Made by a program: the position numbers and the translations under genes. Below are positions 7,260-35,651 of a stretch of DNA of 35,651 nucleotides, one piece after another. Position 1 is the stretch's first letter. Each line of letters opens with the position of its first letter. A model generated the notes under the pieces. That model was given only the letters and a program-made list of their open reading frames with translations, was not told the origin of the DNA and did no database searches. The stretch lies in the NCBI GenBank assembly GCA_025435555.1, contig JAIWWG010000168.1, forward strand, positions 1 to 35,651. Reading direction: 5' to 3'. Source of the stretch: Chytriomyces cf. hyalinus JEL632. Its lineage: Eukaryota; Chytridiomycota; Chytridiomycetes; Chytridiales; Chytriomycetaceae.

Positions 7260-7802
7260 TGATGGATGTTGATTGGCAACTCATGGTCGTTTTAACAGGT
7301 GTCAACGTTGATGCGGATGCAAAGGAACGCATGGAAGAGTGCGGGGCATGAGGCTTGCGATGATCAGGTGTGTGGGGGGAAGAGTAGGTGCTGCCAGCAC
7401 AGGCGTACGTGGCCTGCGTGCTGCGTGGCCCTTGAATTGGGTCTCGATTCTGATTGGTCCGTGACCAGATTGCCCTGAAATGCAAATCCCGAACAAAAAG
7501 AAATGGAAAACGTTGGAAAATGGATCTCGCATTCTGATTGGCTGATGCAATCCTTACTTTTCTAGGCAAAAGAAACCCTGATAGATTGGACGTCCAAAGC
7601 GGCAGGGTGCCTGATTCAACGATGGGTGACGTGCACCAACTGACACGTACACATGAACAAGACGTGTCGTTTGAATCGCAGTCGTAGCTACCATTTTGTG
7701 AAATCACAACTTCATAATGCCAACAAGAGGGATACTGGCAAGGTAATTGCACTCCGCAACACTTTATCGCAACCGACAATTTAAATTTTGGTCCGTCAAT
7801 AC
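7260..7802. promoter_or_regulatory. Divergent intergenic region with two identical CCAAT-type sites
   Basis: This 543-bp region separates the divergent large unknown gene and the Sel1/F-box gene. It carries two direct copies of ATTCTGATTGG at 7447-7457 and 7531-7541. Each contains an inverted CCAAT pentamer, the core bound by the HAP/NF-Y complex in fungi. A TGACGTG motif, CRE-like, lies near 7626. Shared control of both genes is an inference from position only. No other gene was seen here. Confidence 0.35.
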
Positions 7803-9601
7803 ATGGCGGACTCGCCCAACAACAACGAAGATGGCACTGACTTCATCCACTTCCCCTCTTACGACAACTGGCGCTATTGGCAAGGGACCGGAGCAACCAT
7901 CGACACCTATCACGACGCCCTCCACCGGCACAACGACGAGATCAAGTTTAAGCGGCAGTATCCTGAGGACGCCTTCGCAGTCTTTAAATACCTGGCACAT
8001 CTCGGACACGCAGCCGGAATGCTCAGTTACGGCGTCAGCATCATGTTTGGCCAAGGGACGGGTGAGTGGCACGACAAAAAAAAACAAAAAAACATCGTAA
8101 ACGTTCTAAAAAACAAAAACTATCACCAGCTGTTGATCGCAACGGAGGATATGCATGGGTTGAAAAGTCAGCAACGCTCGGTTTTGCCAAAGCGCAACGC
8201 CAGTTGACTGTATACTTGTCAAAAGGTATTGGATGTGAACGAAGCGGAACTGAAGCATTGCGCTGGGCGCAAGCTGCAATAGATCAAGGCTTCGTGGATG
8301 CGCACAGTATAGTTGGAGCCATGTATCTTAAGGGAGACGGTGTTCCTGTGAACCACGCAAAAGGAAGTCAACATTTCTACCAAGGGATAAAGGCTGGGAG
8401 CATCGAATGCATCAGCCAAGTAGGTCGACTGTATCAAACCGGCACTTTGGTGCAAAAGGACATCAAAAAGGCAGTCGAGTTTTATGAAAAAGCAGTAAGC
8501 GTCGACAGTGCCTTGGCATGCTACTATCTTGGGGATGTTTATGAGGCTGGGGATAACGAGAACGGCATTCCAAAAGATCCGACCAAAGCAGCAGCATATT
8601 ACAATCAATCAATCCTACTGGACAATGATTCTTCCGCCGCAATGCAGAGCCTGGCGTACTTGTATGATAATGGGATCGGCGTTGAGCAGAGCGACAAACT
8701 AGCTTTACAATATTATCTGGATGCTGCTAAATTCGACGAAGCAAATGCGTTATACTTCTTGGGTCTCAAATATGCGAATGGAAAGGGCGTCGAACAAGAT
8801 TACACTAAAGCAATCGAATTCTATGAACGGGCCATCAAACAGAACAGCCCAGCAGCAATGAGTAACCTTGGTAACTTGTTAAGTGAGGGTAAAGGATGCG
8901 CCAAAGATTTGGTTCGTTCAGCAGACTTGTACCAGCAGTCGGCAGCCTGTGGCGATGCAGTTGGCGCATTCTACTGTGGCATTGTGTTTCAGTACGGGCA
9001 AGGTGTACCAGTCAACCTGTTCAAGGCAGTTCACTATTATCGAATGTCGGTTCGCTTGAAATTCGACTATTCCAATGAACAGTTGGGACCAAACTCAAGC
9101 ATCAGTCACGATTTATATCAAGCTGCACAAGACCTGCAAACAGAAAAGAAGGATAAAGAGGCCCTTGATCATTTCTACGCTGCTGCAGTCCTGGGCCATG
9201 CAGCAGCCATTACATCGGTTGCTTCAATGTATCGCGACGCTGCTGGACTTGGATCTGTGTTCTATGAGAAGGAAATGCGATACTTTCAGCCTCCAGAAGC
9301 ACCAGACACTACTCTTTCAGTCACGCCAAATGAGCTTCTCCTTCAAATTTTTCAATGGCTTCATCCAAAGGAATGCATTCTTTTGCGACCCGTTTCACGC
9401 AGAATCTGGACGCTGTTTGAAGATGACTCTGCCGCGCGCCATTTATTTAAATTCAACTTTTCCTTGATGCCGCCCCACGAAGCAAGTCGTCAGCTCTGGT
9501 TCGATCAGATGTTGGTTCACGGACCACGCGCGTTTCAAACAAGCTATGTGGAAATGATAGTGAATGCAAGTGTGGATCAGCAACACAGCTCAATAAAATA
9601 A
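7803..9601 (+). CDS. Sel1-repeat protein with C-terminal F-box
   Basis: Exon 1 is 7803-8061, the intron 8062-8129 (68 nt, GTGAGT...CACCAG), and exon 2 is 8130-9601; the protein is 576 residues. Residues about 55-440 hold a run of Sel1-like TPR repeats with the usual A..LG..Y..G.GV..D...A..(Y/F)Y..A pattern, for example LGLKYANGKGVEQDYTKAIE. Near residue 490 is an F-box-like segment (LSVTPNELLLQIFQWLHPKE, then C-I-L-L-R-P-V-S-R). Sel1 repeats are protein-binding scaffolds, and an F-box would recruit Skp1 of an SCF ubiquitin ligase. The inferred role is therefore a substrate receptor. ATG 7803 is the first in-frame ATG. Confidence 0.75.
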
Positions 9602-9613
9602 AAATGCTCCTTT

Positions 9614-12304
9614 TTAAAAGAAGAAGCCCTTCTTCTTCTGAGGTCCTCCGTCGCTGTCCGGCAGCTTGGATTGCATTTGCTCCAGCTTGGAGACAAGGAT
9701 TTCGTTTTGTTCCTGCAAAACATCCCTCTGCTCACTCAATTTGGCAATCTTTTCGTAAAGTGCAGCAACATCTCCTGGAGTTGCTTCAACATTTGCACCG
9801 GGTATATCCACATCGCCTCCCACCACCCCACCAACTCCAGATCCTTTCACAGATTCCAGTTTCGCTTCCGATTCTTTAAGTTTGGCAAACAAGGAATCTT
9901 TGGCCTCTTTCAACCCTTTCACTTGTCCAGTCAGGGAAGCAACCTTCTCCTGTAATACCCCATCGCGCTCTTCATCACTATCTGACAGCTTGGCATCCAG
10001 CTCTTCAGTCTGTTGCCGACTTTTCGCCAACGCAGCCTCCAGTATGGACACTTGATCCTGTAAACCCTGACCAGCGCTCAAGTACGTTTGAACTTGCATT
10101 TTCAATTCCTCGTTTTGATCTTCCGAATCCTCCGCCTTCTCCAACAAGGATTGAATGCGTTCGTCCTTTTGTCGAAGTGCATCCACGTCGAGACTGGATC
10201 GCTCGGAATTTGCTGTAGACATTCGGCGTAACTGGGTAACAGCGTCATCGAGGTCTTGTTGCGCGTATATTAAATTTTCTTGTAGATTGGATGCGATGGC
10301 GGTAAGTTTTGTCTCGGATCGGAGGCAAGATTCTAGTGAGATTCCTCGAGTGAGATATCGCGCTTCTAACGCTCGCAATTGAGCCTTGGTTGAATCCAGA
10401 TGGGTATTCAGCACTTCAACGTCCTTTTCAAGGCTCTTGATGCGGGTGTTTGATTCGGGTCCAACTTCAACGACGCTTGAAGTGTCCTTCTCATTGTCAA
10501 TCGACGTGGGCATTCTCCGGAGCTGGTCCAAAGCGTCTTGCAAGTGTGCTTCGACAATCGCCAGTTCTTCTTGAAGACTGGCAATCACAGTAGCTTGCGC
10601 AACATCGGCCTTCACAGCAGCGTTAGTATCTTTGCCTCCAAAACTCGAGTCTGCGCTCTGAAAGAATCAAACTGCTCATTCACAAGCGCCAAAGTTATTT
10701 CGGAATCCACTGAAGAACTTTGACTTGCGTTGTCCTTGCCATCGGGAGAGGATGGGAATTGCGCTTGTCGCATCATAAGACTTTTGCAAGGTTTCAAATT
10801 GCACACTCAAGGCTTGATATTTCCATTCCAATGCGTTCGTCTCGGCTTTACTTGCATCAAGCGCGTACTGAAGTGCTTCGTTTTGATCTGAACGGTTATC
10901 ATTCCGATCTTCATTTTCACGGATATCGCCCAATGGGGCATCTCTAGACTGACTCATTGATCTGATCAACGATTCGTTCAAAGTTGCAGCCGACGCCCAT
11001 AACTGCTTCTCCGTTTCAAGCAAGGCGATTTCAAGCCGCTCAACTGCCAATCCTCGCGTCAAGAACTTTGATTCCAGCGCACGCAGTTGCGCCTGACTAA
11101 AGTCCACAACTTTACGAAGCTGCAGAACTTCCTTTTCAAGCTGCTCAATTTCAGCAGTATCAAACGGCGGTGAAATCGAAGCGATCCTCTGGCCCGCTGA
11201 TATATTTGCAGCCGCGGTTGCTGCATCGCGTTCATCCAACGCATCTTCAAGATCTCCTTAGGGTTTAACTTGCATGAATTGAGTTTGCAGGTCTGCGATT
11301 TTAACTCTCATGGTGCGACTTGACAGTCCGCGCCCACACCTTCATTTGCTGCTGTTGCGCCGTTTCAACTGAATTGTCCATGGATGGATTCATCATATTT
11401 GTTATGCCTGTGTGCGATTGATCCGTTTTCGGTGGAACAGCACTCGCACGGGATCGTTGTGGGATATTGATGATTGGGTTTTGGGGTGCAATTGGATATT
11501 GGTTTTGCTGTTGCTGCCGTTGCTGTTGCTGGGGTTGTCGCTGGAAGCGGTCGACCAAAGGAACCCTTGGTTGGGGTCGTGTTTCCTCCAGAGTCTGTTT
11601 CTGTTCTTCGAGGTGGTATCGGGAGCGGGTTGCTGTTTTCAGTGAGGGGGCGAGATGTATTGTTTTCGCCTAGTGGGCGTGTGATGCTGGAGGGAGGTGA
11701 CTGGATAAATAGAAAGTCGGTATTTCTGTTTGTGTGCTGTTATCGATTTGTGCAACTGTCATTTTCCCCACTCACCCTTCGCTGCTGTGCTTGTTGAGGA
11801 GTGCCCGAAATCCCTCGTGGAGGTGCTTTCCCGTACGGTTTCGCTAGAGGAGAACTCGTCGGCGGCATCGAAGGAGACGCTGATCGAGCTGGAATCACGA
11901 AGAGATCGTTTGAGGAAGTGGATGCCGATGTTGAGTTCCTGGGCAGCGAGTCTGCGTATTTGCGAATGTATTCATCCAGAGAGTCGATCGCGGAATTCGA
12001 TAATGGATCCGTGTCCTGCGACGGAGAACTGATTGCGTCAACAGGTTGCTGTTGCGTTGCGAATGGGGGGCCGCTGCCGGATGCTGAGATTGTTCGTGGA
12101 GGAGGTGCTTTGGATCGGGTTCGTTGCGGGACATATGGGCGGCCAGAGTTCTTGGTGTTTGCAAGGTTGTTGTAGTCCTGTGATGCATAGGGTGAAGAAG
12201 ACGCTGTGGATATGAAGGGGGTGAGTGTTGGAGAGAAGGGCGTAAGATGGGATGACAGCACCTGATGGAACAGGCGGAGGGGCGTCGGAGGAGACACGGC
12301 TCAT
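9614..12304 (-). CDS. Q/P-rich coiled-coil protein with internal repeats (reading frame ambiguous in the middle)
   Basis: Exons 12262-12304, 11776-12203, 11306-11669 and 11256 to 9614 join by introns 12204-12261, 11670-11775 and 11257-11305. The last is only 49 nt and starts GTTAAA. The N-terminal 290 residues are rich in Pro, Ser and Gln with a Q-run. The rest is coiled coil. A repeated block has the core AQLRALE(S/A)(K/R)(F/Y)LTRG, seen clearly at about 11050-11120 and 10345-10400. A third, weaker copy (FRAQTRVLEAKILT) sits near 10620-10680 in another frame. Between about 10790 and 10630 the frame changes and then returns. Two small introns could explain this, or two compensating single-base indels; the repeat similarity favours indels. 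The C-terminus ends in a short Lys/Phe tail. A structural or scaffold role is guessed only. ATG 12304 is preferred, although the frame stays open upstream to 12589, where the divergent promoter should lie. Confidence 0.6.
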
Positions 12305-12594
12305 TTGCGGTTGGTTGTCTGTCTTTGTCTTTATCGGGCCAGTAAATAAAGAGTAAACTGAGTTTTTTATAATTCCGAGTTTAAACCTTGGACGTACGTG
12401 GATGAATGAAAGCTGGATCCCATGCTCGTAACTTGCGACTGGGAGATATACGAAAGCAGTATCTGAAAGGCCAATGGTTCTGGAGCGTGTTTTCTCACTC
12501 AACACATGACCCATTTTTTGAAAGTGTTCAACGGCTGAACTTACTCTCCGGACATCAACTGCTACCCGCCATCGGTTGATAAAAAACATAAGAA

Positions 12595-13302
12595 ATGGCT
12601 GTCATTGTAGGTGCTGGACCAGCTGCTGCAGCTGCCGGCGCAATCGGAGCTGGGTCTGAACTTTTGGCGGCCGGTGCCCTGGCCGGAGCTGGGTTAAGCG
12701 CCACCACAGCAGCCACAGCTGCTGGCGCTGTTGGAGGAGCAGTGGGTGCAGTTGCATCAGGCACTGGTGTTGTGGCGGGTGCTGGGATTGGTGCCGTGGC
12801 TGCAGGGGCTGGTGGTGCCACTATGGGTGTTGTTGGAGGGGCAGCTGGCCTGGTTGGTGGTGCCGCCACTGCTGCAAGTATCACTGCAGCTGGGTCTGCT
12901 GCATCGGCTGTCGCTGTTGGCACTGTCGGTGGTTCTCTCTCGACGGGACTTGGAGCTGCTCTTGTGGCCGCTGGGCCAGCTGGATGGGTTGCTGGAGCGG
13001 CTCTAGTCGCATGCGGAAGTCTTATTGTAGGTGCATCCACGGATGAGGAAGTTTTAGTTGACTGGTCATGCTGGCAAAAGTGTCTGTGCTGTCCAGGCGT
13101 TGTCGAAGGCCTCGCAGCTCAAGAACACCAGGGGATCCCACTAGCACAGCTCCTCCAAGCCAGCTGCATTCAATGCAATTCCTGCGATTCCGACATCAGG
13201 GCTGTCATTCGCAACCATTCTGGCCAAATGTTTGGATTGAAATACGTTGGCAACCCGTTGAATGGATCGCTTATTGGACTGCATCTTGAAGAGATATTCT
13301 GA
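12595..13302 (+). CDS. Gly/Ala-rich glycine-zipper membrane-type protein
   Basis: This is a single exon of 235 residues. Residues 3-150 are almost entirely Gly, Ala, Val, Ser and Thr with dense GxxxG/AxxxG spacing, for example GAVGGAVGAVASGTGVVAGA, typical of tightly packing glycine-zipper membrane helices. The last 85 residues are different: an acidic turn, VDWSCWQKCLCCPG with several Cys, and a small globular tail ending GLHLEEIF. I recall fungal proteins with a Gly-zipper N-terminus and a W-x-C-W tail, but none has a function I can name. No signal peptide is evident. The start lies 290 bp from the divergent coiled-coil gene. Confidence 0.65.
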   Translation: MAVIVGAGPAAAAAGAIGAGSELLAAGALAGAGLSATTAATAAGAVGGAVGAVASGTGVVAGAGIGAVAAGAGGATMGVVGGAAGLVGGAATAASITAAGSAASAVAVGTVGGSLSTGLGAALVAAGPAGWVAGAALVACGSLIVGASTDEEVLVDWSCWQKCLCCPGVVEGLAAQEHQGIPLAQLLQASCIQCNSCDSDIRAVIRNHSGQMFGLKYVGNPLNGSLIGLHLEEIF

Positions 13303-19263: not shown

Positions 19264-21838
19264 TTATGGTCCAAACAGCTCCTTCACAGTCCGCACTGTC
19301 TTCAACAGAAACTGGTACCGTTCAACCAGTTCCGATTCATGCAAGTCATCACTCGAAGCAGCCTTTTTGAGGAGTTTGGGGTCCCATGTAAAAGGTTCAC
19401 CGCGTGTTTTGAGTTGGCTGTGCGGCGTTGCGCCAGGCTTGCGCTGCTTATGCTTTTGCGCATTTCAAAGATGGTGGGTTTGTGGGATGAGGGTAGGTTG
19501 GATTGTGGTGTTGGAGGAAAGTCGTGGCCTTCAGCGGCAGGTGCAGCGTGTTGGGTTCCATGAGGGTAGTGTGATCAGGCTCGTTCTTGATCATTGAGGG
19601 CATTCGAAGACTTCGAATTTCTTCCGTCAGTTGATCCACGCGGTGTTTCAGATTCACTGCGTTATCTTTCTCCAGTTGGAACTTGGATTTCTCTGACTCA
19701 AATTCCTACAGCTGACTATTCATCTGAATCAGTGCCTCAAAAGTTTCGTGAATCAGTTTAGAGCTCTTTGAATGATCCCTCTCCATTCAGATTTTTAAGA
19801 ACCCAAGAGATCTGACAACGCGTGTTTCTCGGCGATTATTTTTTGCAGCTCCGTCGATTGGATTTCAAGAATGCGATGAAGTTCCACGAATTCGGCTTCC
19901 AAGTGACTTATGCGTCTTCTGAGTCGAGCAATTTCAGGCGGAGGCAATGTGACACGGATTCGTCGTTTTGCATCGTTTGAGTGAGTTTGGCGGTTTCTAG
20001 TGTAGCGGTTTCTGTTGCTTTCGTTTAATGGAGAAGTTTTTTCGAGGTCCTTGATCAGCTCCCTGCTTTCAAGCGTTGCTGGTTCCGCTTCTGACTGTTT
20101 CCTCGTAAGTTGCGCGTTTTCAATCTCAAGATTCCGCATTTTCTCCTCAGCAACAGACCCCGCAACAGCCACATCAGGATCACTTTGCAAACTCACAATC
20201 GCCATTTCATCTGCCGCGTGCGCCAAATTCGCTTCAGCCAAAAGAGATTTCAACTGCGCAATTTCAGCCAAAAGTGGAGCAACTTGTGAATTTGCGCCGC
20301 AAGTGTCGATTGTGATTCGGGATTTGTTTTGGGTGCCTCGAGCGCGGGAGGCGTACTGTATTTCTTTGTTGTGAGTAGACTTTTTTTTTTTTTTTTTCGA
20401 AATCAACAGTTTAATACTCACGCGCAGAGTGTTGATGGATTCGGATAGATCGGATTCAAGTGAACTGACACATGCGAGCATTACTGTTTTGCTTTGAAAA
20501 CAAACCAATTCAGGATATGTTCATTTGCGAAACAATATGAAAGAGAAACCTGTTTCCGCCGAGACTATGTTGCAAATACTTCGTGAGTTTACTGTCTCCG
20601 TATGGCACAACAGCGTCCGGGTTGTTGGGTTTCGACTCGGACAGACAGTTGATGACGCGTCCGAGAACGAGCAGCCCTTGGTTGATGCATATACCCTCTG
20701 TCTTTCGATCGCCCGTGTTTTGAGTTCGTTTAAACTGTCGAGCGTAGCTTGGATCCCTTTGCAAGAAGGTTATGCATTCATGGTCAGTGCGCTTCCAAGG
20801 GCACAGCTCACCGTACGGCTGCTTCTGAGCTGTCGACAATGACGGTGGTCGCACCACAAATCGCGATCCCGCCCTCCTTGTCTTCCCTGATGGAGACATC
20901 CTCCCCCAGCTTCGCTTTCGTCTTGAACGCGCTTGGTGTCTGCGGCTTCTTTGCCGTGTTTGCTAGTTTTGACTCCTTCAACAAATCCACCCATTAATCA
21001 TTATGCAGCTCGAGAAAAGATACCGACACGCTGTATGATTTCAGCGTTTCATTGTGCGTCGTTGATGGTTCGCAGGCTCGAAGTGTCCCCAACTCGTTGA
21101 AGATTGCATGTACCGCACGTGGGATCATTCCACTGGAAGCATTTAAATCGTGTTAAGATATAGCGCTGTCGCTTGGAGACATGGCTGGCTTTGCCCGTCT
21201 TGCCAACGAAACAAAACTCGATGGACGCGGTTTCGATGGCATGCTTGGCTTGATGTGGTTGTCAAGCGACCCGACGTTTTGGCAGCGTGTGTTTCTTTGG
21301 GTTTCGAAGGAGTTGCGGATCTCCTGGGCGTGGGATCAGCGACAGCGGTGCCCATGGTGAATGTTTTTCCGCTTCCAGTTTGACCATACGCAAACAGCGT
21401 CGTATTGAATCCTCGATAAACGCGGATACCAACCTGCGACTTCCGATTCGAAAATGGATTCCTTTCAATTTTTTGAGTCATACCTTTTTTGAGCATCAGC
21501 TTTCTATAAAAAAGAGGAACATTATACCTGGTTCGAATCTTCCGCGCATACCGAATCGTATTCTCAGTCGCTGCGGCAACTACTGCCGACGAGGACACAT
21601 CCGTGCCAGTAGCAAGCAAAGTAGACGCGTTTGAGGGACATAGAATGCGGATTGACTGATTCGAATTTGGTACAATGAAGGAAGAACACGTATCCGTTGC
21701 AGATTTCGAAGGAGCAGTCTTGCTGTCTGTGATGCACGCGTCGTTTGTTGATGTGGGTCGGATTCTTACGGCCACACGCACAGAGGAGGAGTGTGTGCGG
21801 GTGGGTTGAGTAGTTGTGGGTTCTGGGTTGGGGTCCAT
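19264..21838 (-). pseudogene. Kinesin (kinesin-4-like) relic
   Basis: Kinesin motor pieces occur in correct order: VRVAVRIRP at the start, RGFNTTLFAYGQTGSGKTF (P-loop 21362-21385), SVSFLELHND, VSIREDKEGGIAICGATT, INQGLLVLG, SKLTKYLQHSLGGN and INTLR/YASRAR. A coiled-coil tail follows, ending with YQFLLKTVRTVKELFGP. Several lesions are visible. A TAA stop lies at 20994-20996 inside the motor and a TAG at 19706-19708 in the tail. Frames change after the P-loop and near 19510. The family Arg of PYRDSKLT is Gly. No SSRSH (switch I) or DLAGSE (switch II) motif remains between SSEAAVR and RQFKRT, although a good intron (20757-20811) sits there. Without both switches a motor could not cycle ATP. Some introns are still recognisable, so this is a decayed ordinary copy, not a retrocopy. 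Confidence 0.8.
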
Positions 21839-22036
21839 TTTGGGGGCTCCTGTTAGTTTGTTGGATGCGTTGACAAATCTTTATTTTCTCCAAACTCTTT
21901 TCTCGTGGCCTGGCAGCCTGGTATCAGAAACACGTCAAGATTACATACTTGGAAAGCATTTCAGAAATCTGAGGACAGAGTTGGTCTTTATTTTATTGAA
22001 TCAAGTTAAAATCTCATTTTTGTGTCTCGTTTTCCT

Positions 22037-23106
22037 TCATAAATTGGAGTAGTACCAGAGACCTTTCAAATTCCCGCCCCACCATTTCGTGGACCATGCT
22101 CCAGCGGCACCTGCAGCGGTGGAGAGTTTGCAAGCTGGGTAAATGGACTTGATGGCATTTACCATGTCAGCAACGATGGCAGAGTACTTGTACACTGTCT
22201 GATCCAACTGGAACGGCCCAGTCCCGTTTCCAGAACGGAACGCGTCTGCATGCCACATTTCTTCATAGTCCAAGTCAACACCGTCAAGTCCAAGATCCTT
22301 GGCAAGATGAATAAAATCAGTGTACGGGTCCCGCTTGACGGTCACAAAGTAATCGCTTCCTGGCACCGTTGTTGCAGATCCGCCTTGAGGATCCGCAAAC
22401 TGAGCACCGGGCGTGATTTCAGAGTGCCATTGGACGGGCATTCCTTTAACCCCACTTTCAATCACGGCTTGGGCGGCTCTCCAAGTGTCGGTGTTGCCTG
22501 GCTCGGGGAAGATTGTAAAGTCCTTGAGCGACGTGTTTTGAGATTGCGGCTCGCACACATAACACCACATATTGAACTCATTGCATCCAGACGCGGATCC
22601 TGCCCCGTACTGCGTGATTTTCCAAAAGTTGGGGCCTTTGCCAAACGATGCGATCGAGTATTTCTGTAAAACCAAGATTCAGAGCTTGACAATCAATAAA
22701 AAGCCCAGATTTCACTCACTGCGTAAAAGTAAGGATAACAGTTGTAGTTCCATCCTCCCATCGAAAGAAACACTTCAACGCCTCCCGCTTGAAGGTCCAC
22801 AACATGTTTCATGACTTCTGCGAATCCATAGTCTCCTTCTGAAGCGTACCCAATATCCGCATGTTCAAGCGTGTTGCTCCAAGGAAGGTACACCATGTCC
22901 GGTCTCACGAACGAAAGGTAGATTCGGTTGATGGGAATGGTTGCGGCATTGCTGGCAAGCGCTTTGAGTTTTGATGGGCCTTCGCTTGGGTTTAGGAGTA
23001 GGTAGCCTGCTGCGACTTTGTCTGCGTCGATTGGTGGATTTGCCAACGCATTCACGACGTTGGTGTATGAGAGGAGGGCCGCAATGGCAATGCTGGCTGG
23101 ATGCAT
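22037..23106 (-). pseudogene. GH18 chitinase copy 1, N-terminal two-thirds (inverted part)
   Basis: Exons 22720-23106 and 22037-22663 (intron 22664-22719, GTGAGT...TTACAG) encode 337 residues. They include a signal peptide (MHPASIAIAALLSYTNVVNA), the GGWNYNCYPY segment and the GH18 catalytic motif DGVDLDYEE, whose Glu is the proton donor. The sequence follows the intact paralogue at 24351-26257 up to WYYSNL, where homology stops within a codon or two at about 22040 and a TGA ends the frame. The remaining third of the same protein lies on the opposite strand at 23220-24073. An inversion of about 1.18 kb explains this. The ORF and its TATA box are intact, so a truncated secreted product could still be made. 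It would lack the last barrel strands and the C-terminal module. Confidence 0.85.
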
Positions 23107-23164
23107 TATGTGTGTGAGATGATGCTGTATTTCTGCGTTAGACGATGCCTACCGTAAGTTGATG

Positions 23165-23172
23165 TTTATATA
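23165..23172 (-). promoter_or_regulatory. TATA box of chitinase copy 1
   Basis: TATATAAA on the minus strand, 59 bp upstream of ATG 23106. The same octamer precedes the intact paralogue at 24293-24300. The promoter was therefore carried along in the inversion. Confidence 0.55.
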
Positions 23173-23219
23173 TGAGCAGCTGTGTCTGTAGTGTTGATGG
23201 GAAAGATGATTTGTTTTGA

Positions 23220-24073
23220 TTGTGAACCAGTTCATGTTCAAGGGACCCAACGCTGGCGGCATCAATGTCATGACCTACGATCTCTCCAAAAACAACAATT
23301 ACTTTGAATGCCCTGATACCACTGCCAACTGCGATTTGGCTGGACAAGTCAAGTTTTACATGAACACGTATGCTGCTGCGGGGATTCCTGCGCGTGTGGG
23401 GCATGAAATTGGGCAGCCTGCGTATCCGGATGCAGCGAATGACGCTGGTAATCAGATTCCGTTGACTCAATCTGAGTTGACGGGGATTTTGAGTGGTGTT
23501 TCTTCGAGTTCGACGATGGGCGGATTCTTCTGGGAGCTGTACAAGGCCAAAAATAGTGAGCCAACGGGTGCGAAAGGACAACCCAACAATATTGATGTCA
23601 CGTCTGTGGCGCAGCAGGTTTGTGCCAAAGTACTGCCAAACGAGTCGCGATGCAAAGGGTCGATTCCTCAAGTTGGTGGCTCACAACCTGCTCCGGCATC
23701 GCAGTCTTCAGCGACAGGGTCTCCAAAAATTACCACCTCTTCTATTGTAGCAGCAACTGTGACTATACCACCAGCCCCTCCAACGATTGCATCTGCATCA
23801 CAGTCGGTGTCCGAGAAAACAAAAGCGTTACCTTCAGCCACTGCAGATACTCCCTCGAAAACAACAACTGCACAAACGACAGCATCTTGTAGTGATAATG
23901 ACGATGAGGACAGTGCACCTAAAAGCCAAACAGTTGTTGCCGGTGGAGGGGCCATACAAGGATCGCCTTGTTCCGTGCACGGTCAGACAGTCTGCACAGA
24001 AGGCAACACGTACCAGTGCGCATACTACGGGACGCATGCCCTGAGTTGGGGCCAATGGTACACCGGTTGTTGA
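23220..24073 (+). pseudogene. GH18 chitinase copy 1, C-terminal third (left in original orientation)
   Basis: Homology to the intact paralogue begins at about 23220 (VNQFMFKGPNAGG against VTKFMSAGANAGG) and runs to the stop at 24073. It includes the end of the GH18 barrel (NVMTYDLS, GGFFWELYK), a Ser/Thr/Pro-rich linker with an acidic SDNDDEDS patch, and a C-terminal Cys/Trp module (CSVHGQTVC...YQCAYYG...WGQWYTGC) that is probably carbohydrate-binding. The piece has no signal peptide, no catalytic motif and no start codon at its 5' end (the first ATG is at about 23231), so it is a severed gene end. Only about four codons (W-Y-P-E of the paralogue) are missing between the two halves. Confidence 0.85.
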
Positions 24074-24350: not shown

Positions 24351-26257
24351 ATGAATCCTCTTGCTGTTCTTCTCGCCGTGGCGACCACCGTCGCCGCCCT
24401 CGCTACCCCGCCTGTCGGAAACGCCGTCTCTGCCGGCTACCTCCTCCTGAACCCAACCACCGGTCCAGCCAAGCTCAAGGCCCTCGCCGAGAACGCGGCC
24501 ACCATCCCCGTGAACCGCATCTACTTGTCCTTTGTCGCGCCCACGATGGTGTATGTGCCTGGAAGCAACACGCTTCAATATTCGGACATTGGGTATTCGA
24601 GCTCAGGCGATTACGGCTTCGCTGATGTGAAAAAGTATGTTGCGCAGCTCCAAGCTGGAGGTGTCGAGGTCTTTCTGTCCATGGGTGGCTGGAACTATAA
24701 CTGTTACCCGTACCTGTACATGGTTTGTTCTTTTTTTGCCATTTCTTTCGGACGGGGTGACTTGGCAAGGTAAAAAATTAACAATTTTGTGACAATAGAA
24801 ATACTCGATCGCCTACTTTGGCAAAGGGCCAAACTACTGGAAAATCACTCAGTACGGTGGCGGTTCGGCTGCTGGCTGCAACGAATCCAACATGTGGTGC
24901 TACGTGTGCGAGCCACAGTCCGAAAACACAACTTTGAAAGACTTTATTGTCTTCCCAGAACCCGACAATGCGAGCACTTGGAAGGCTGTGCAGTCGACCA
25001 TTGCTGCCGGCGCCAAAGGAGAAGCCATCAAGTGGCACCCTGAGATTGTCGGAGGAGCCAAGTTCACGGACCCAGTTGACAAACAGACTGTCACGACGGT
25101 TCCGGGAAGCAACTACTTTGTGACTGTCAACAGAGACCCCTACACTGACTTTGTGTACTTGGCTAAAGATTTGGGTCTGGATGGTGTTGACTTGGATTAC
25201 GAGGAAATGTGGCATGGTGAGCATTGTTTTTTCTGCCTGTGCTCTTCTGTGATGTTGACTTTCATCTCTACCAGCCGATACTTTCCGCTCTGGTTCTGGC
25301 ACTGGACCATTCAAGTTGGATCAGACAGTTTACAAGTACACTGCGATTGCTCTTGACATGGTGAACGCCATCAAAGCCATTTACCCCGCGTGCAAGCTTT
25401 CGACTGCAGCTGGTGCTGCCGGTGCTTGGTCAAACAACTGGTGGGGTGGCAATTTAAAAGGGCTCTGGTACTACTCGAACCTGTGGTACCCCGAAGTAAC
25501 CAAGTTCATGTCTGCTGGAGCCAATGCCGGAGGAATCAACGTCATGACGTACGACCTTTCCAACAACAATGTTTACTTTGAATGTCCCGACACCACCTCC
25601 AACTGCGAGCTTGGAGGCCAAGTTAAATTCTACATGAACACTTACGCGACTGCAGGAATCCCTGCCCGGGTCGGATACGAAATCGGACAGCCCGCTTACC
25701 CAGACCCAAGCAACGACCCTACCCACCAAATTCCCCTTACTCAGTCTGCTTTGACAGAGATTTTGAATGGAGTGCCCAACACGGGAAGCGTCGGTGGATT
25801 CTTCTGGGAGTTGTACAAGCCCAAAAACAGTGCTCCAACTGGACCCAGCGGCCAACCAAACAACATTGATGCCACCAGTGTGGCCCAGCAAATGTGTGCC
25901 AAAGTTTTGCCAAACGCAACTCGTTGCAAGGGTGTTATTCCACCCATTGACGGCAGCAGCCCAGTTACTACCGCCAGTCAAGTGCCAACCACAAGCTCTG
26001 CAGTCCCTACCACATCTGCAGTGCCTACCACAAGCTCTGCTGTCCGAACCACCAGTGCCATCAAGTCGAGCACGACATCGTCGAAGAAGACCACCACCAA
26101 GGCCACGACTGCAGGACCAGTAACGACTGGATCCGGCGACCTTTCTGGAACGGCGTGCACAGTCTTTGGCGGAACTGTGTGCTCCAACAAGGTTCTGTAC
26201 CAGTGCGCGTACTACACTGGAAACACCTTGACGTGGGGCAAGTGGACCACCTGTTGA
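24351..26257 (+). CDS. Secreted GH18 chitinase with C-terminal Cys/Trp module
   Basis: Exons 24351-24722, 24799-25216 and 25275-26257 give 590 residues. A signal peptide (MNPLAVLLAVATTVAALA) precedes a GH18 domain with the GGWNYNCYPY segment and the catalytic motif DGVDLDYEE (Glu as acid/base). The enzyme should hydrolyse beta-1,4-linked N-acetylglucosamine in chitin outside the cell. Next come a Thr/Ser-rich linker of about 75 residues (residues 475-550) and a Cys-flanked module (GTVCSNKVLYQCAYYTGN, then WGKWTTC) resembling small chitin-binding modules; I cannot fix its CBM family. The first intron starts GTTTGT. The second (25217-25274) is absent from copy 1. A TATA box lies 50 bp upstream. 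The role could be remodelling the fungus's own wall or feeding on chitin. Confidence 0.88.
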
Positions 26258-30036: not shown

Positions 30037-30594
30037 AAGACACAATGCAGCTTTTTTGGGGGGGAACGAAATAAAAACAGAAATAGTTTTTGTCGTGCTC
30101 TTTGGTCTGGACAATGTCTGCGGTTTCGTTTATTCCATCTTCATTTGCGGCTTCAGCGAACGACGATGTGTGCGTCTCGTTCGCAAGCAACGCATCGAAG
30201 CTGTCAAGATGTCTTCCCAGCACATCTTCATTCTTTGGGACCGCGTTGTCTGGCACTGAGGGGAAAAAATTTCCTCTCAAAAAAAAAGGAAATAAAAACG
30301 GCGAAAAACAAGTATTGGAGACCCTGGGAAAACAGAAGTCGAGAACTTTTCCAAGCTATATCAAATGAATCTCATTTGTCCACCTTAGTCGCGTAATTCT
30401 GTTTTTTTTTTTCATTTGAAATGCTCCCCCGTCACGCCGTCAACAACCACAATTGACTGGCACACATCAATGCTTGGATACTCATCCGCAATTCCCTTGA
30501 GGACTTTATTTGGTGTTTGGATGATCAAGATGAGATTGGGTCTGAACAACTGATCTTCAATGGACGAAATGCGTCTCACACAAAACCTCATTAT
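30037..30594. other. Intergenic stretch with two unassigned minus-strand open segments
   Basis: Downstream of the NDPK gene, minus-strand sequence at about 30070-30260 reads [20 protein letters not shown] and further acidic text after a good acceptor (CCCCTCAG). It has no confirmed start or stop and overlaps antisense to the NDPK 3' end. A second open segment, 30594 to about 30421, continues in the same frame beyond the stop of the F-box gene (ISSIEDQLFRPNLILIIQTP) and may be a read-through or unspliced last part of that gene. Neither can be assigned a function. Confidence 0.3.
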
Positions 30595-31842
30595 TCATAC
30601 ACCTCGGTAAACAAAACACAGTTTCTCATCACCATTACCACCATTATCATCATTACAATCATTACCATCATCACCAGTATCACCAGTATCACCAGTATCA
30701 CCAGTATCACCATCATCATCACTGTCGTCATCATCACCATCACCAGCATCACCATCACCAGCATCACCATCATCACCATCATCTTCATCATGGGTGTCCT
30801 TATGCCAGCCGTGTTTCAGAAAGTCAGAAGTGACTCCTTCCCATGCATCCAATTCCATTTCGCTCGCCCGTGATGATATCTCGCACCACACTTTCCGAAT
30901 ACGCGATCCCTTCATCCGACGCAGAATGCGACCCACCACCAGATCTGGATTGATTTCGAAACTCAGCAGTCGCGAAAACGCAAGCTCTGTCAGATTCAAG
31001 CATTGGGAAAGTTTGTTCCTTTCATGCATGTCTTGAAGACAATCCACTTGAAGGTATTGGAGCCCAGAGATGCGTGGAAGAATGTCCTGAATGTTGCCTG
31101 GCAGTGTATCTATCCAGATGAGTGAGCGGATTGGTAGCCGCGCAAGTTGTTTGGCAACACCAGACCATCTGTCGTACGCCTTGACGAGGCCGACTGTGCA
31201 AGACAAGATTCGCTTGTTCGCATCCGCGAGCCCACGCAGAAATTCGGCCCATCCTGATCCAGTGTAAATGTCGCCAGGACAAACGGACAGCACATCAGGA
31301 AGTATGCCTAGGTAGTTTAAGGCATTTGTGGAACCAGGTATATGGACGTTCCCGCCATGTTTCGAAACGATGCGTGCATACACTCCAGCAGCGTGCATGT
31401 GTTGGATCGGGAACAGGGTTGTTTTTAACTCGGCATTTGTGAACCTTGGCAAATACATGTCCGGCCAAAGCTTGGATGGCGTGTAACGTTCATTGGGGAA
31501 TCGATGAGCAAAGTCAAACATGGCTGTCGAAATATACTTGTAGTATGGCAGCGCATGGCACAGCGGCAGAATTGACTCGGCGCGAACAAACTGAAAAATG
31601 CGATCGAGGATCTCTGGCGGCATCATCTGAAATGCAGCAGAGCGGGTGATGGATCCCAGGCACGGGGCAGGGTTGTCAATTGCATTGCCAGTGGATAATT
31701 CGAATGCATCCATGCTGGTCAAAGGGCCCATCTGGAGCAATTTGCGGTAGAAATTCAGCTCGTCAAGCGCTCTTTGATGCAGCGACTGGACGTGGACAGC
31801 GTGTCGCTGACAGCATGCGCAGTTTAGGTGGCACGGAGTCAT
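30595..31842 (-). CDS. F-box protein with acidic Gly/Asp-repeat tail
   Basis: This is a single exon of 415 residues from ATG 31842. Residues 1-20 contain a Cys/His-rich start (PCHLNCACCQRH). An F-box follows at about residues 70-115 (MMPPEILDRIFQFVRAESIL). The middle has leucine-rich-like segments (LARLPIRSLIWIDTLPGNIQ; LNLTELAFSRLLSFEINPDL) that suggest an LRR-type substrate-binding region. The C-terminus is a low-complexity Asp/Gly/Thr tail encoded by a trinucleotide microsatellite, including four units of GDT. The likely role is an SCF adaptor; the substrate is unknown. The frame stays open after the TGA at 30595-30597, so the true end could be further down if an intron was missed. Confidence 0.65.
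   Translation of the reverse strand: MTPCHLNCACCQRHAVHVQSLHQRALDELNFYRKLLQMGPLTSMDAFELSTGNAIDNPAPCLGSITRSAAFQMMPPEILDRIFQFVRAESILPLCHALPYYKYISTAMFDFAHRFPNERYTPSKLWPDMYLPRFTNAELKTTLFPIQHMHAAGVYARIVSKHGGNVHIPGSTNALNYLGILPDVLSVCPGDIYTGSGWAEFLRGLADANKRILSCTVGLVKAYDRWSGVAKQLARLPIRSLIWIDTLPGNIQDILPRISGLQYLQVDCLQDMHERNKLSQCLNLTELAFSRLLSFEINPDLVVGRILRRMKGSRIRKVWCEISSRASEMELDAWEGVTSDFLKHGWHKDTHDEDDGDDGDAGDGDAGDGDDDDSDDDGDTGDTGDTGDTGDDGNDCNDDNGGNGDEKLCFVYRGV
30627..30795. repeat. ATC/ACC trinucleotide microsatellite coding an Asp/Gly tail
   Basis: Impure repeats of ATC and ACC on the plus strand, including four perfect 9-bp units of CACCAGTAT near 30673-30708. On the minus strand they encode the Asp-Gly/Asp-Thr-Gly tail of the F-box protein. 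Confidence 0.8.
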
Positions 31843-32159
31843 TGTTTTTCACTTTTAAATGGGACACATTACACTTGATTGCTGGCCCGTGTTTTGGGAC
31901 TTATTTACCTGTAAAAGGCATCAAAAAAAGAGGTGGTTTTGAGAATGACCGTGTTTAAGAAACTGCACAAAAGACACGCGCTGTTTGCCTCGACACCTCC
32001 CAGTTCCTAACGCCTCCGCTCATTTGCTTCTTTAATTTGCGGCAGCTGGTCACATGCCAAAACTCATCTGCAATGGATGCAGTTCATTGACCATTTGTGC
32101 GCAAAATAAGCAAGAGGTGACTGCCACATTATTTGAGAGTCAAATTCATGAATGTTGGT
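31843..32159. other. Intergenic stretch upstream of the F-box gene
   Basis: This 317-bp region holds the promoter of the minus-strand F-box gene. Nothing else was recognised: no gene, no TATA box. Confidence 0.4.
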
Positions 32160-32640
32160 ATGCAAAACACACTCTGTCTTTCATCATCATTGGTTTCCCT
32201 TGTACCAGCCGTGTTTGAGAAAGTCAACTTATTTATTTATCAGTGCACCATGAGACTCACAAGTGATGAATGCCCCACAAAGCGAGCTATTCTCCAGTAC
32301 CACACCATCCATACACAGTACGTCAAAGTTTTCGGATCCTTTGAAATCCCAAACCTGCCTGGACTGCCAGTAAATCGAAACAGTCCCTATAGGCTCAATA
32401 AGTCAATTCTAGGGAAACCACCGTCATCTTAAAGCTCAAGTGACTGCAGAATTGATCTGCTGGGTAAAGAATCCGGTTTGAGAGGGATTCGAACACCCTC
32501 AAGATTATCTGCGCCCGAGGAAACTGCTCAATGTCCGAAAATCTCAAGCAAACGGCACCATAGTCCTGTGGGACGTTCGAAAACCATTTCTTGGAGTGAT
32601 TCTCCAAAAGTTGCTCGCCGACATACTTGGAAGCAAACTT
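32160..32640 (-). pseudogene. Degraded relative of the adjacent F-box gene (fragment)
   Basis: Near 32180-32226 the DNA matches 30782-30828 of the F-box gene over about 45 bp. On the minus strand this reads VDFLKHGWYKG against SDFLKHGWHKD, with stops on both sides and a short ATG-rich remnant where the microsatellite should start. Further upstream (32395-32607, minus) an open segment with SDIEQFPRAQIILRVFESL recalls the open segment below the F-box gene stop (SSIEDQLFRPNLILI), though weakly. No complete frame exists. It is probably an old partial duplicate. Confidence 0.4.
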
Positions 32641-32747
32641 AGTATGAGTAGTGATACTGCCCGTCTTTAGTCATACCCAAGTCCGGACTGCCCAATAAAA
32701 AAAAACATTTTGTTTTTTGAAGGGGAAAAAGTTAAAATAAAAAGAAG

Positions 32748-34794: not shown

Positions 34795-34866
34795 GAAATT
34801 TTGAGCTCTCCTTTATGTTGAGTACATGAGGAGACCACTGGTCCACCTTGACCAGGATCTGCAACA
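34795..34866 (+). repeat. Left inverted repeat arm
   Basis: Begins GAAATTTTGAGCTCTCC and ends GATCTGCAACA. It pairs with the reverse complement of 35057-35128 with substitutions near 34797, 34818, 34833 and 34860. Confidence 0.8.
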
Positions 34867-35056
34867 ACCAAGTGTTCATTCTACAAGCAGCACTTTTGTC
34901 CAGGGTCTCTTGATGCCAACAGAAGAGCTAGTAGAGGCCCCATACCATGCCATTGGCAGCAGGGGGCAAAGGCAAAGAAGAAAACGACCAAGACATGGGC
35001 AAGCCTGCATGTGATTTGAAGTTAAAAAAAAGAATAAAAAAAGAAACAGGCAGACA

Positions 35057-35128
35057 TGTTGCGGATCCTGGTCAAGGTGGACCAGTGGTTTCCTCATGTA
35101 CTCAGCATAAAGGAGAGCTCAAAATCTC
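35057..35128 (-). repeat. Right inverted repeat arm
   Basis: Begins TGTTGCGGATCC on the plus strand and ends AGCTCAAAATCTC. It is the reverse complement of the left arm apart from about four substitutions. Confidence 0.8.
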
Positions 35129-35651
35129 TAGAATGCATGAAGATGTGGGAAACAGGTATTTGAGCACCTGCAGACCCCATACGTAACAAAGATGTGAAAT
35201 CCACACGACTTTGTGTAAGTATAGACAAGCCACGGGGACAGTAACACACCGTCAATCACACACACAGGTCTCTGGCACATCTGTCAAGCCCTATAAGCAC
35301 CCAGGTGCCATCCATGGCTATTTATTGTCAGTAGATGAGAAGTTGTGAAGCATCTCGCCAAGACCCCAATAAATCTTTAATTACACAAAGTTGGGACCTT
35401 AAGCGATCCACCACAATAACATAACATCATCACATGACACCCTCACCAAGTCGTCATAAGGTGTCAGACTCTATTACTCTAGAGAATACCAACAGTACTA
35501 AGCCAAACTACCTGCAACACCAAGCATTTGGAAGAAACACACCAGTACATAGCTTGTGTAGTTGAAACAAAGGTTTGAGCCTGGATAGGCGGCACTTGAG
35601 GACCCAGATCTTGCATAAGCAAAGTTCAAAGTTAGTACACCACAGTCAAAC
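35129..35651. other. Gene-free stretch at the right edge
   Basis: This 523-bp stretch has no open frame above about 60 codons with any recognisable product. Unlike the rest of the window it shows no splice-like or coding texture. It may belong to a larger repeat that also contains the foldback arms. Confidence 0.4.

What the first reader, a model, noticed from the sequence alone, without database searches (positions are those of the whole stretch)
22037..23220. A 1.2-kb micro-inversion cuts a chitinase gene in two
The N-terminal two-thirds of chitinase copy 1, with its TATA box, lies on the minus strand (22037-23172). The last third lies on the plus strand from 23220. Compared with the intact paralogue 24351-26257, only about four codons are missing between the two halves, so the breakpoints can be placed to within roughly 10-50 bp (about 22040 and 23173-23220). 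The truncated N-terminal ORF keeps its promoter, signal peptide and catalytic motif and may still be expressed.
Basis: seen in the sequence. Interest (0 to 1): 0.75.

Follow-up and report, generated by a model that had tools for sequence, protein, structure and literature searches.

The report
Small inversion breaks a chitinase-like gene
In this eukaryotic genome, probably a fungus, one of two neighbouring chitinase-like genes has been cut in two because about 1.2 kb of DNA was flipped, while a diverged second copy of the same region keeps the gene whole; this is a clean but ordinary example of how genes are broken.

Summary
The genome carries a second, diverged copy of the window contig on contig C183, collinear at 80-88% DNA identity apart from some unmatched stretches. 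Inside it, only window 22038-23222 runs backwards (89.4% to C183:130494-131700). The C183 gene is continuous: 624 codons, one intron, no internal stop. Breakpoints are set almost to the base: at 22038-22039 (two-base ambiguity) and 23222/23223. Eleven bases of the C183 gene have no counterpart, and no inverted repeat longer than chance links the sites. That fits two breaks rejoined by end joining.

The halves are 337 and 282 codons (54% and 45%, not two-thirds and one-third). Neither has a frameshift or premature stop, and Ka/Ks is 0.10 and 0.25, so the break is young relative to the C77/C183 split, or the parts are still constrained. The N-half keeps a TATA box and gains an AATAAA 40 nt past its new stop; it lacks the rest of the catalytic domain, so activity is unlikely. 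"Chitinase" is weaker than stated: GH18 scores are below Pfam's cut-off. Whether C183 is allele, homoeologue or segmental copy is open. Ordinary gene loss; low interest.

The parts
22037..23106 (-). N-terminal half of gene A (337 codons, signal-peptide-like start by eye, DGVDLDYEE motif), inverted, ending in a new TGA at 22039-22037
   Evidence: spliced translation; counterpart C183:131573-130494
22664..22719 (-). 56-bp intron of the N-half (GTGAGTGA...TTTTACAG)
   Evidence: 388-443 of the stretch 23106->22037; the C183 gene has a 67-bp intron at the same place
23107..23222 (-). 116 bp upstream of the ATG carried along in the inversion, with a TATA box starting at 23172
22038..22039 (.). left breakpoint: CA that can belong to the flank or to the flipped end
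23222..23223 (.). right breakpoint; 11 bp of the C183 gene (130483-130493) have no counterpart
23223..24073 (+). C-terminal half of gene A (282 aligned codons: end of the catalytic domain, Ser/Thr/Pro-rich linker, Cys-containing tail), in original orientation
   Evidence: C183:130482 downwards
21992..21997 (-). AATAAA 40 nt beyond the N-half's new stop, possible polyadenylation signal
24351..26257 (+). gene B, intact paralogue (590 codons, two introns)
   Evidence: second copy C183:127546-129412 at 90%
21143..21838 (-). left neighbour, open frame with a kinesin motor piece; keeps about 200 bp of its own upstream DNA before the breakpoint
   Evidence: Pfam Kinesin 4e-10

Best explanation
Gene A was broken by one inversion of about 1.185 kb. 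One double-strand break fell in the short space between the divergent kinesin gene and gene A; the other fell inside exon 2, shortly before the residues GGINVMTYDL. The fragment was rejoined backwards by end joining, with loss of 11 bp at the inner site and at most a 2-bp match at the left junction. Shown: the geometry, the breakpoints and the intact counterpart. Inferred: the end-joining route, that the change is in the organism and not in the assembly, and that gene A on this copy no longer makes an active enzyme. The loss is probably tolerated because gene B next door and a whole gene A on C183 remain.
For:: the C77 contig is collinear with C183 from base 1 to about 34,800 (with unmatched stretches) and only 22038-23222 of gene A is reversed; the other opposite-strand matches are gene A against gene B; alignments run cleanly up to the same base on both sides; the C183 gene is open over 624 codons; the longest exact inverted repeat between the 300-bp surroundings of the two sites is 8 bp, reached by 166 of 300 shuffles, so no repeat-mediated flip or repeat-driven misassembly is indicated. 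Identity of the flipped segment (89.4%) is close to that of the downstream flank (87.2%; upstream 81.7%), so it is the local copy and not an import.
Against: No reads, no second strain and no transcript could be examined. The halves are not visibly decayed (0 stops, 0 gaps against C183; Ka/Ks 0.10 and 0.25), which a very recent event, remaining constraint or an assembly error would also give. Window-specific replacements at sites fixed in the three outgroup copies are 5 to 0 in the N-half and 1 to 1 in the catalytic part of the C-half, but the control gene B shows 0 to 4 and 0 to 3 the other way, so relaxed constraint is not shown.
Confidence: 0.88

Rival explanations
1. Assembly or library artefact: the C77 copy is in fact uninverted and the two junctions are false joins (for example chimaeric molecules from whole-genome amplification).
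For: No reads available; C77 is a short contig (35,651 bases) lying inside the range of a longer one; both halves are undecayed.
Against: Two separate false joins with correct outer flanks would be needed; no inverted repeat beyond chance at the sites, no Ns in the window; 11 bp are missing and the junction bases are clean.
Confidence: 0.07
2. Gene fission: both halves are still expressed and kept by selection as two separate proteins.
For: Both frames open, Ka/Ks 0.10 and 0.25; N-half has TATA and AATAAA, C-half keeps its own 3' end with AATAAA signals and has an in-frame ATG at 23234.
Against: The C-half has no signal peptide by eye and has lost its own promoter, and the catalytic domain is cut through (invariant columns on both sides of the cut). 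If both pieces were unconstrained for the whole C77 lineage, 7.6-11.4 stops would be expected, but seeing none is also compatible with a break in roughly the last quarter to two-fifths of that time.
Confidence: 0.04
3. Two unrelated truncations of two different gene copies that happen to lie head to head.
For: The gene family is locally tandem (A and B).
Against: Both halves match one continuous C183 gene best, end within 11 bp of each other on it, and the flanks continue into the same C183 stretch.
Confidence: 0.01

Closest known systems
Microinversions seen between related genomes (human-chimpanzee, PMC8755829, abstract and passages seen; Drosophila, PMC1779558, listing seen)
   Same: A short segment reversed in place within collinear flanks.
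   Different: The human-chimpanzee set is 17-33 bp long and always flanked by inverted repeats of 3-75 nt; this one is about 1.2 kb, has none beyond chance and loses 11 bp.
Inversions from two breaks repaired by non-homologous end joining (PMC6861252, passages seen)
   Same: No repeats at the breakpoints; small loss at one junction, two-base ambiguity at the other.
   Different: Those are chromosomal inversions in Drosophila; here the segment is shorter than a gene.
Glycoside hydrolase family 18 chitinases (Pfam PF00704), numerous in chytrids that live on chitin (PMC12115818, passages seen)
   Same: DxxDxDxE-type motif (recalled as the GH18 signature), partial profile match, and a relative on C170 that follows an ordinary GH18 domain in what reads as one gene.
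   Different: Score below Pfam's cut-off (26.4 and 23.7 against 29.6 bits); the PF00704 genome search lists 30 matches, none in genes A or B; no credible relative in solved structures.

Membership tests
Gene-disrupting microinversion | Segment reversed between collinear flanks relative to an uninverted homologue | tested here: met
Gene-disrupting microinversion | Both junctions inside or beside the same gene, with the reading frame ended at the junction | tested here: met
   N-half ends in TGA at the junction
Gene-disrupting microinversion | Present in the organism, seen in independent reads or other isolates | not testable with these tools
   no reads or related isolates held; the search tool states that G000 has no relatives here
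Inversion by end joining | No inverted repeat at the breakpoints beyond chance | tested here: met
   8 bp longest, 166 of 300 shuffles reach it
Inversion by end joining | Small deletion or fill-in at junctions | tested here: met
   11 bp absent at one site, 2-bp ambiguity at the other
Site-specific or invertible switch | Inverted repeats bounding the segment | tested here: not met
   none beyond chance
Site-specific or invertible switch | A recombinase encoded nearby | tested here: inconclusive
   none among the eight other window ORFs scanned; the rest of the window was not scanned
GH18 chitinase (PF00704) | Pfam score over the curated cut-off | tested here: not met
   26.4 and 23.7 bits against 29.6 for the intact A and B proteins
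GH18 chitinase (PF00704) | DxxDxDxE catalytic motif | tested here: met
   DGVDLDYEE in A and B, DGIDLDYEE in the C170 copy; that this is the GH18 signature is recalled
GH18 chitinase (PF00704) | (beta/alpha)8 barrel and chitinase activity | not testable with these tools
   spliced proteins and C183 loci fall outside the structure predictor's stated rule, so none was submitted; no assay

The most novel reading that the evidence does not exclude
A young gene fission: the inversion left each half with usable start, stop and polyadenylation signals, and the two parts (a secreted N-terminal part and a separate fragment with the linker and tail) are both made and kept, so a microinversion has turned one enzyme gene into two new genes.
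Probability: 0.04. Interest if true: 0.55.

Novelty: new member of a known kind. Interest (0 to 1): 0.2.

Why it matters
It is a small inversion that can be read almost to the base, because an uninverted copy of the locus is in the same assembly. It shows gene loss by a repeat-free inversion in a small tandem gene family. It also shows that the contig is a diverged second copy of part of another, which matters to anyone counting genes in this genome.

Tried and rejected
Considered a repeat-mediated flip or an invertible switch: no inverted repeat beyond chance at the sites. Considered an import from another copy: the flipped segment matches C183's local gene A at 89.4%, against 81.2% (197 bp) and 67.9% (783 bp) for pieces of C183's gene B and 67.4% for C170.

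Genome-wide duplication was tested as the origin of the C183 copy and is not settled. Against uniform duplication: topoisomerase II matches lie on one contig (5 matches on C206), the best HSP90 match (C227) has no close twin, and the C170 copy has none. For other duplicated blocks: the RPB1 pair C51/C199 at 94-96%, the HSP90-family pair C26/C169 at 89.5% over 3.56 kb, and a 4.3-kb match of C183 to C111 at 87%. In one search the 10-kb C170 query returned one 73% match and did not list itself, so I give that call no weight.

Relatives of the protein: none confirmed among prokaryote contigs (7 pattern matches) or viral contigs (62 pattern matches); each scan used two short peptide patterns only. 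Solved structures gave only E 0.29 or worse. NCBIfam gave one match at E 0.54 for the C-half, not credible. Rfam and tRNA scans of the window were empty. Paper searches: microinversion + fungi + intragenic found 0 papers; searches gave nothing used. Species not identified; 'probably a fungus' is my judgement from short introns and gene content, not a test.

Full report
What is there. Gene A in the window is in two pieces. On the minus strand, from ATG 23106, two exons separated by a 56-bp intron give 337 codons ending in TGA at 22039-22037. On the plus strand, a frame open from 23216, with a first ATG at 23234, runs to 24073; 282 codons of it align with the intact counterpart. Gene B, 24351-26257, is an intact paralogue with two introns and 590 codons.

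The uninverted state. Searching the window's own genome (37.8 Mb, 242 contigs) with gene B found close copies on C183 and a more distant one on C170. The window is the whole of contig C77 (35,651 bases). It lies collinear on C183 from base 1 (C183:155,650) to about 34,800 (C183:120,008), at 80-88% identity for the main blocks. Window stretches of about 7582-9611, 12503-13038, 30308-32706 and 34799-35651 had no listed C183 match, and C183 has stretches of its own, so the copies also differ by insertions or losses. Within this, 20735-22039 matches C183 133052-131699, then 22038-23222 matches 130494-131700 in the opposite direction, then 23223-26378 matches 130482-127443. The remaining opposite-direction matches in those calls are gene A against gene B. 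The C183 gene A is continuous, with 624 codons and no internal stop.

The breakpoints. Alignments of each side stop at the same base. The left junction can be moved by two bases (22038-22039) because the flank and the flipped end share CA. The right junction is 23222/23223. Eleven bases of the C183 gene, 130483-130493, are missing. The flipped piece carries 116 bp upstream of the ATG, with a TATA box starting at 23172. The longest exact inverted repeat between the 300-bp surroundings of the two C183 sites is 8 bp, reached by 166 of 300 shuffles. End joining of two breaks is the simplest route; this step is inference. Very short inversions in apes are reported to be always bounded by inverted repeats (PMC8755829, abstract and passages seen), while inversions from two rejoined breaks are ascribed to non-homologous end joining (PMC6861252, passages seen).

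Age and state of the pieces. Against C183 the N-half has Ks 0.299, Ka 0.029, ratio 0.10 (bootstrap 0.06-0.15). The C-half has Ks 0.197, Ka 0.050, ratio 0.25 (0.15-0.41); its catalytic part is at 0.11 and its linker and tail at 0.35. Gene B shows 0.125 overall, with 0.05, 0.16 and 0.52 for the same three parts. There are no gaps in either half of A; gene B has 11 gap positions. If both pieces had been free of constraint for the whole C77 lineage, 7.6 to 11.4 stops would be expected at 0.10-0.15 substitutions per site; none was seen. This limits a neutral period to roughly the last 26-40% of that time (indels not counted, transition weight of 2 assumed).

Lineage test. Over 310 ungapped columns of the N-half, 18 sites differ between the two A copies: 5 changed on the window side at sites fixed in both B copies and C170, 0 on the C183 side, 13 could not be assigned. 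Over 145 columns of the C-half (catalytic part only) 5 differ: 1, 1 and 3. Gene B, with C183 A and C170 as outgroups, gives 0 against 4 (7 unassigned) and 0 against 3 (5 unassigned). This does not show relaxed constraint.

What the pieces could do. The N-half keeps the DGVDLDYEE motif, but the cut falls before GGINVM-YDL and GGFFWEL, which are invariant in C183 A, window B and C170. I recall these as the region of the later barrel strands of GH18; no structure was predicted, because the predictor takes only sequence read directly from the window and from certain loci. An active enzyme from the N-half alone is unlikely. A truncated transcript is possible: an AATAAA lies 40 nt past the new stop. 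The signal peptide was judged by eye.

Is it a chitinase. The name is only partly supported. The intact A and B proteins score 26.4 and 23.7 bits against a Pfam cut-off of 29.6. The N-half alone scores 16.0 bits, the C170 relative 18.4 and the C-half gives no match. A six-frame search of the genome with PF00704 lists 30 matches, none in genes A or B, and solved structures give no credible match. In favour, the C170 relative follows a GH18-matching stretch (C170:149497-148258) and is joined to it by an open Ser/Thr/Pro/Ala-rich frame, so the domain keeps company with an ordinary GH18 domain.

What C183 is. Allele, homoeologue or segmental copy is not settled. C77 lies inside the range of a longer contig, as an unmerged second haplotype would, but 12-20% divergence is high for alleles. 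Topoisomerase II matches lie on one contig and the C227 HSP90 has no close twin, so the genome is not uniformly duplicated; yet RPB1 on C51/C199 (94-96%) and an HSP90-family gene on C26/C169 (89.5%) are paired. The conclusion about the inversion does not depend on this.

Verdict. It is an ordinary kind of event: one gene lost to a small inversion.

Noticed in passing
window 1-35651: The contig is a diverged second copy (80-88%) of C183:120,008-155,650; gene counts from this assembly may count such blocks twice.
   Followed up: partly
window 7582-9611: Stretch without a C183 match, holding a Sel1-repeat/F-box-like ORF (8066-9601) with further copies at 75-78% on C24, C67, C68 and C196: a dispersed gene family inserted here or lost from C183.
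   Followed up: no
L014 7589-7929 (C183:111.6 kb): A repeat of about 325 bp with 36 listed matches at 96-99% elsewhere, nine pairs of them 5.0-5.2 kb apart on one contig, as the long terminal repeats of a retrotransposon would be.
   Followed up: no
L030, L031, L032 (C114, C120, C209): Partial RPB1-like stretches, 80-96% identical to each other and to the fuller copies on C51 and C199: fragments or extra copies of a normally single gene.
   Followed up: partly
L012 (C170:146397-149497, minus strand): The C170 relative follows a GH18-matching stretch through an open Ser/Thr/Pro/Ala-rich linker: a likely two-domain chitinase-like protein with an ordinary and a diverged GH18-like domain.
   Followed up: partly
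window 25217-25274 (gene B intron 2): Gene B has a second intron that gene A lacks, shortly after the catalytic motif; C170 has introns elsewhere: intron gain or loss within a small family.
   Followed up: no
window near 11301, and 12503-13038, 30308-32706: C183 carries about 3.4 kb (142,799-146,225) that is absent here near 11301, while two window stretches have no listed C183 match.
   Followed up: no
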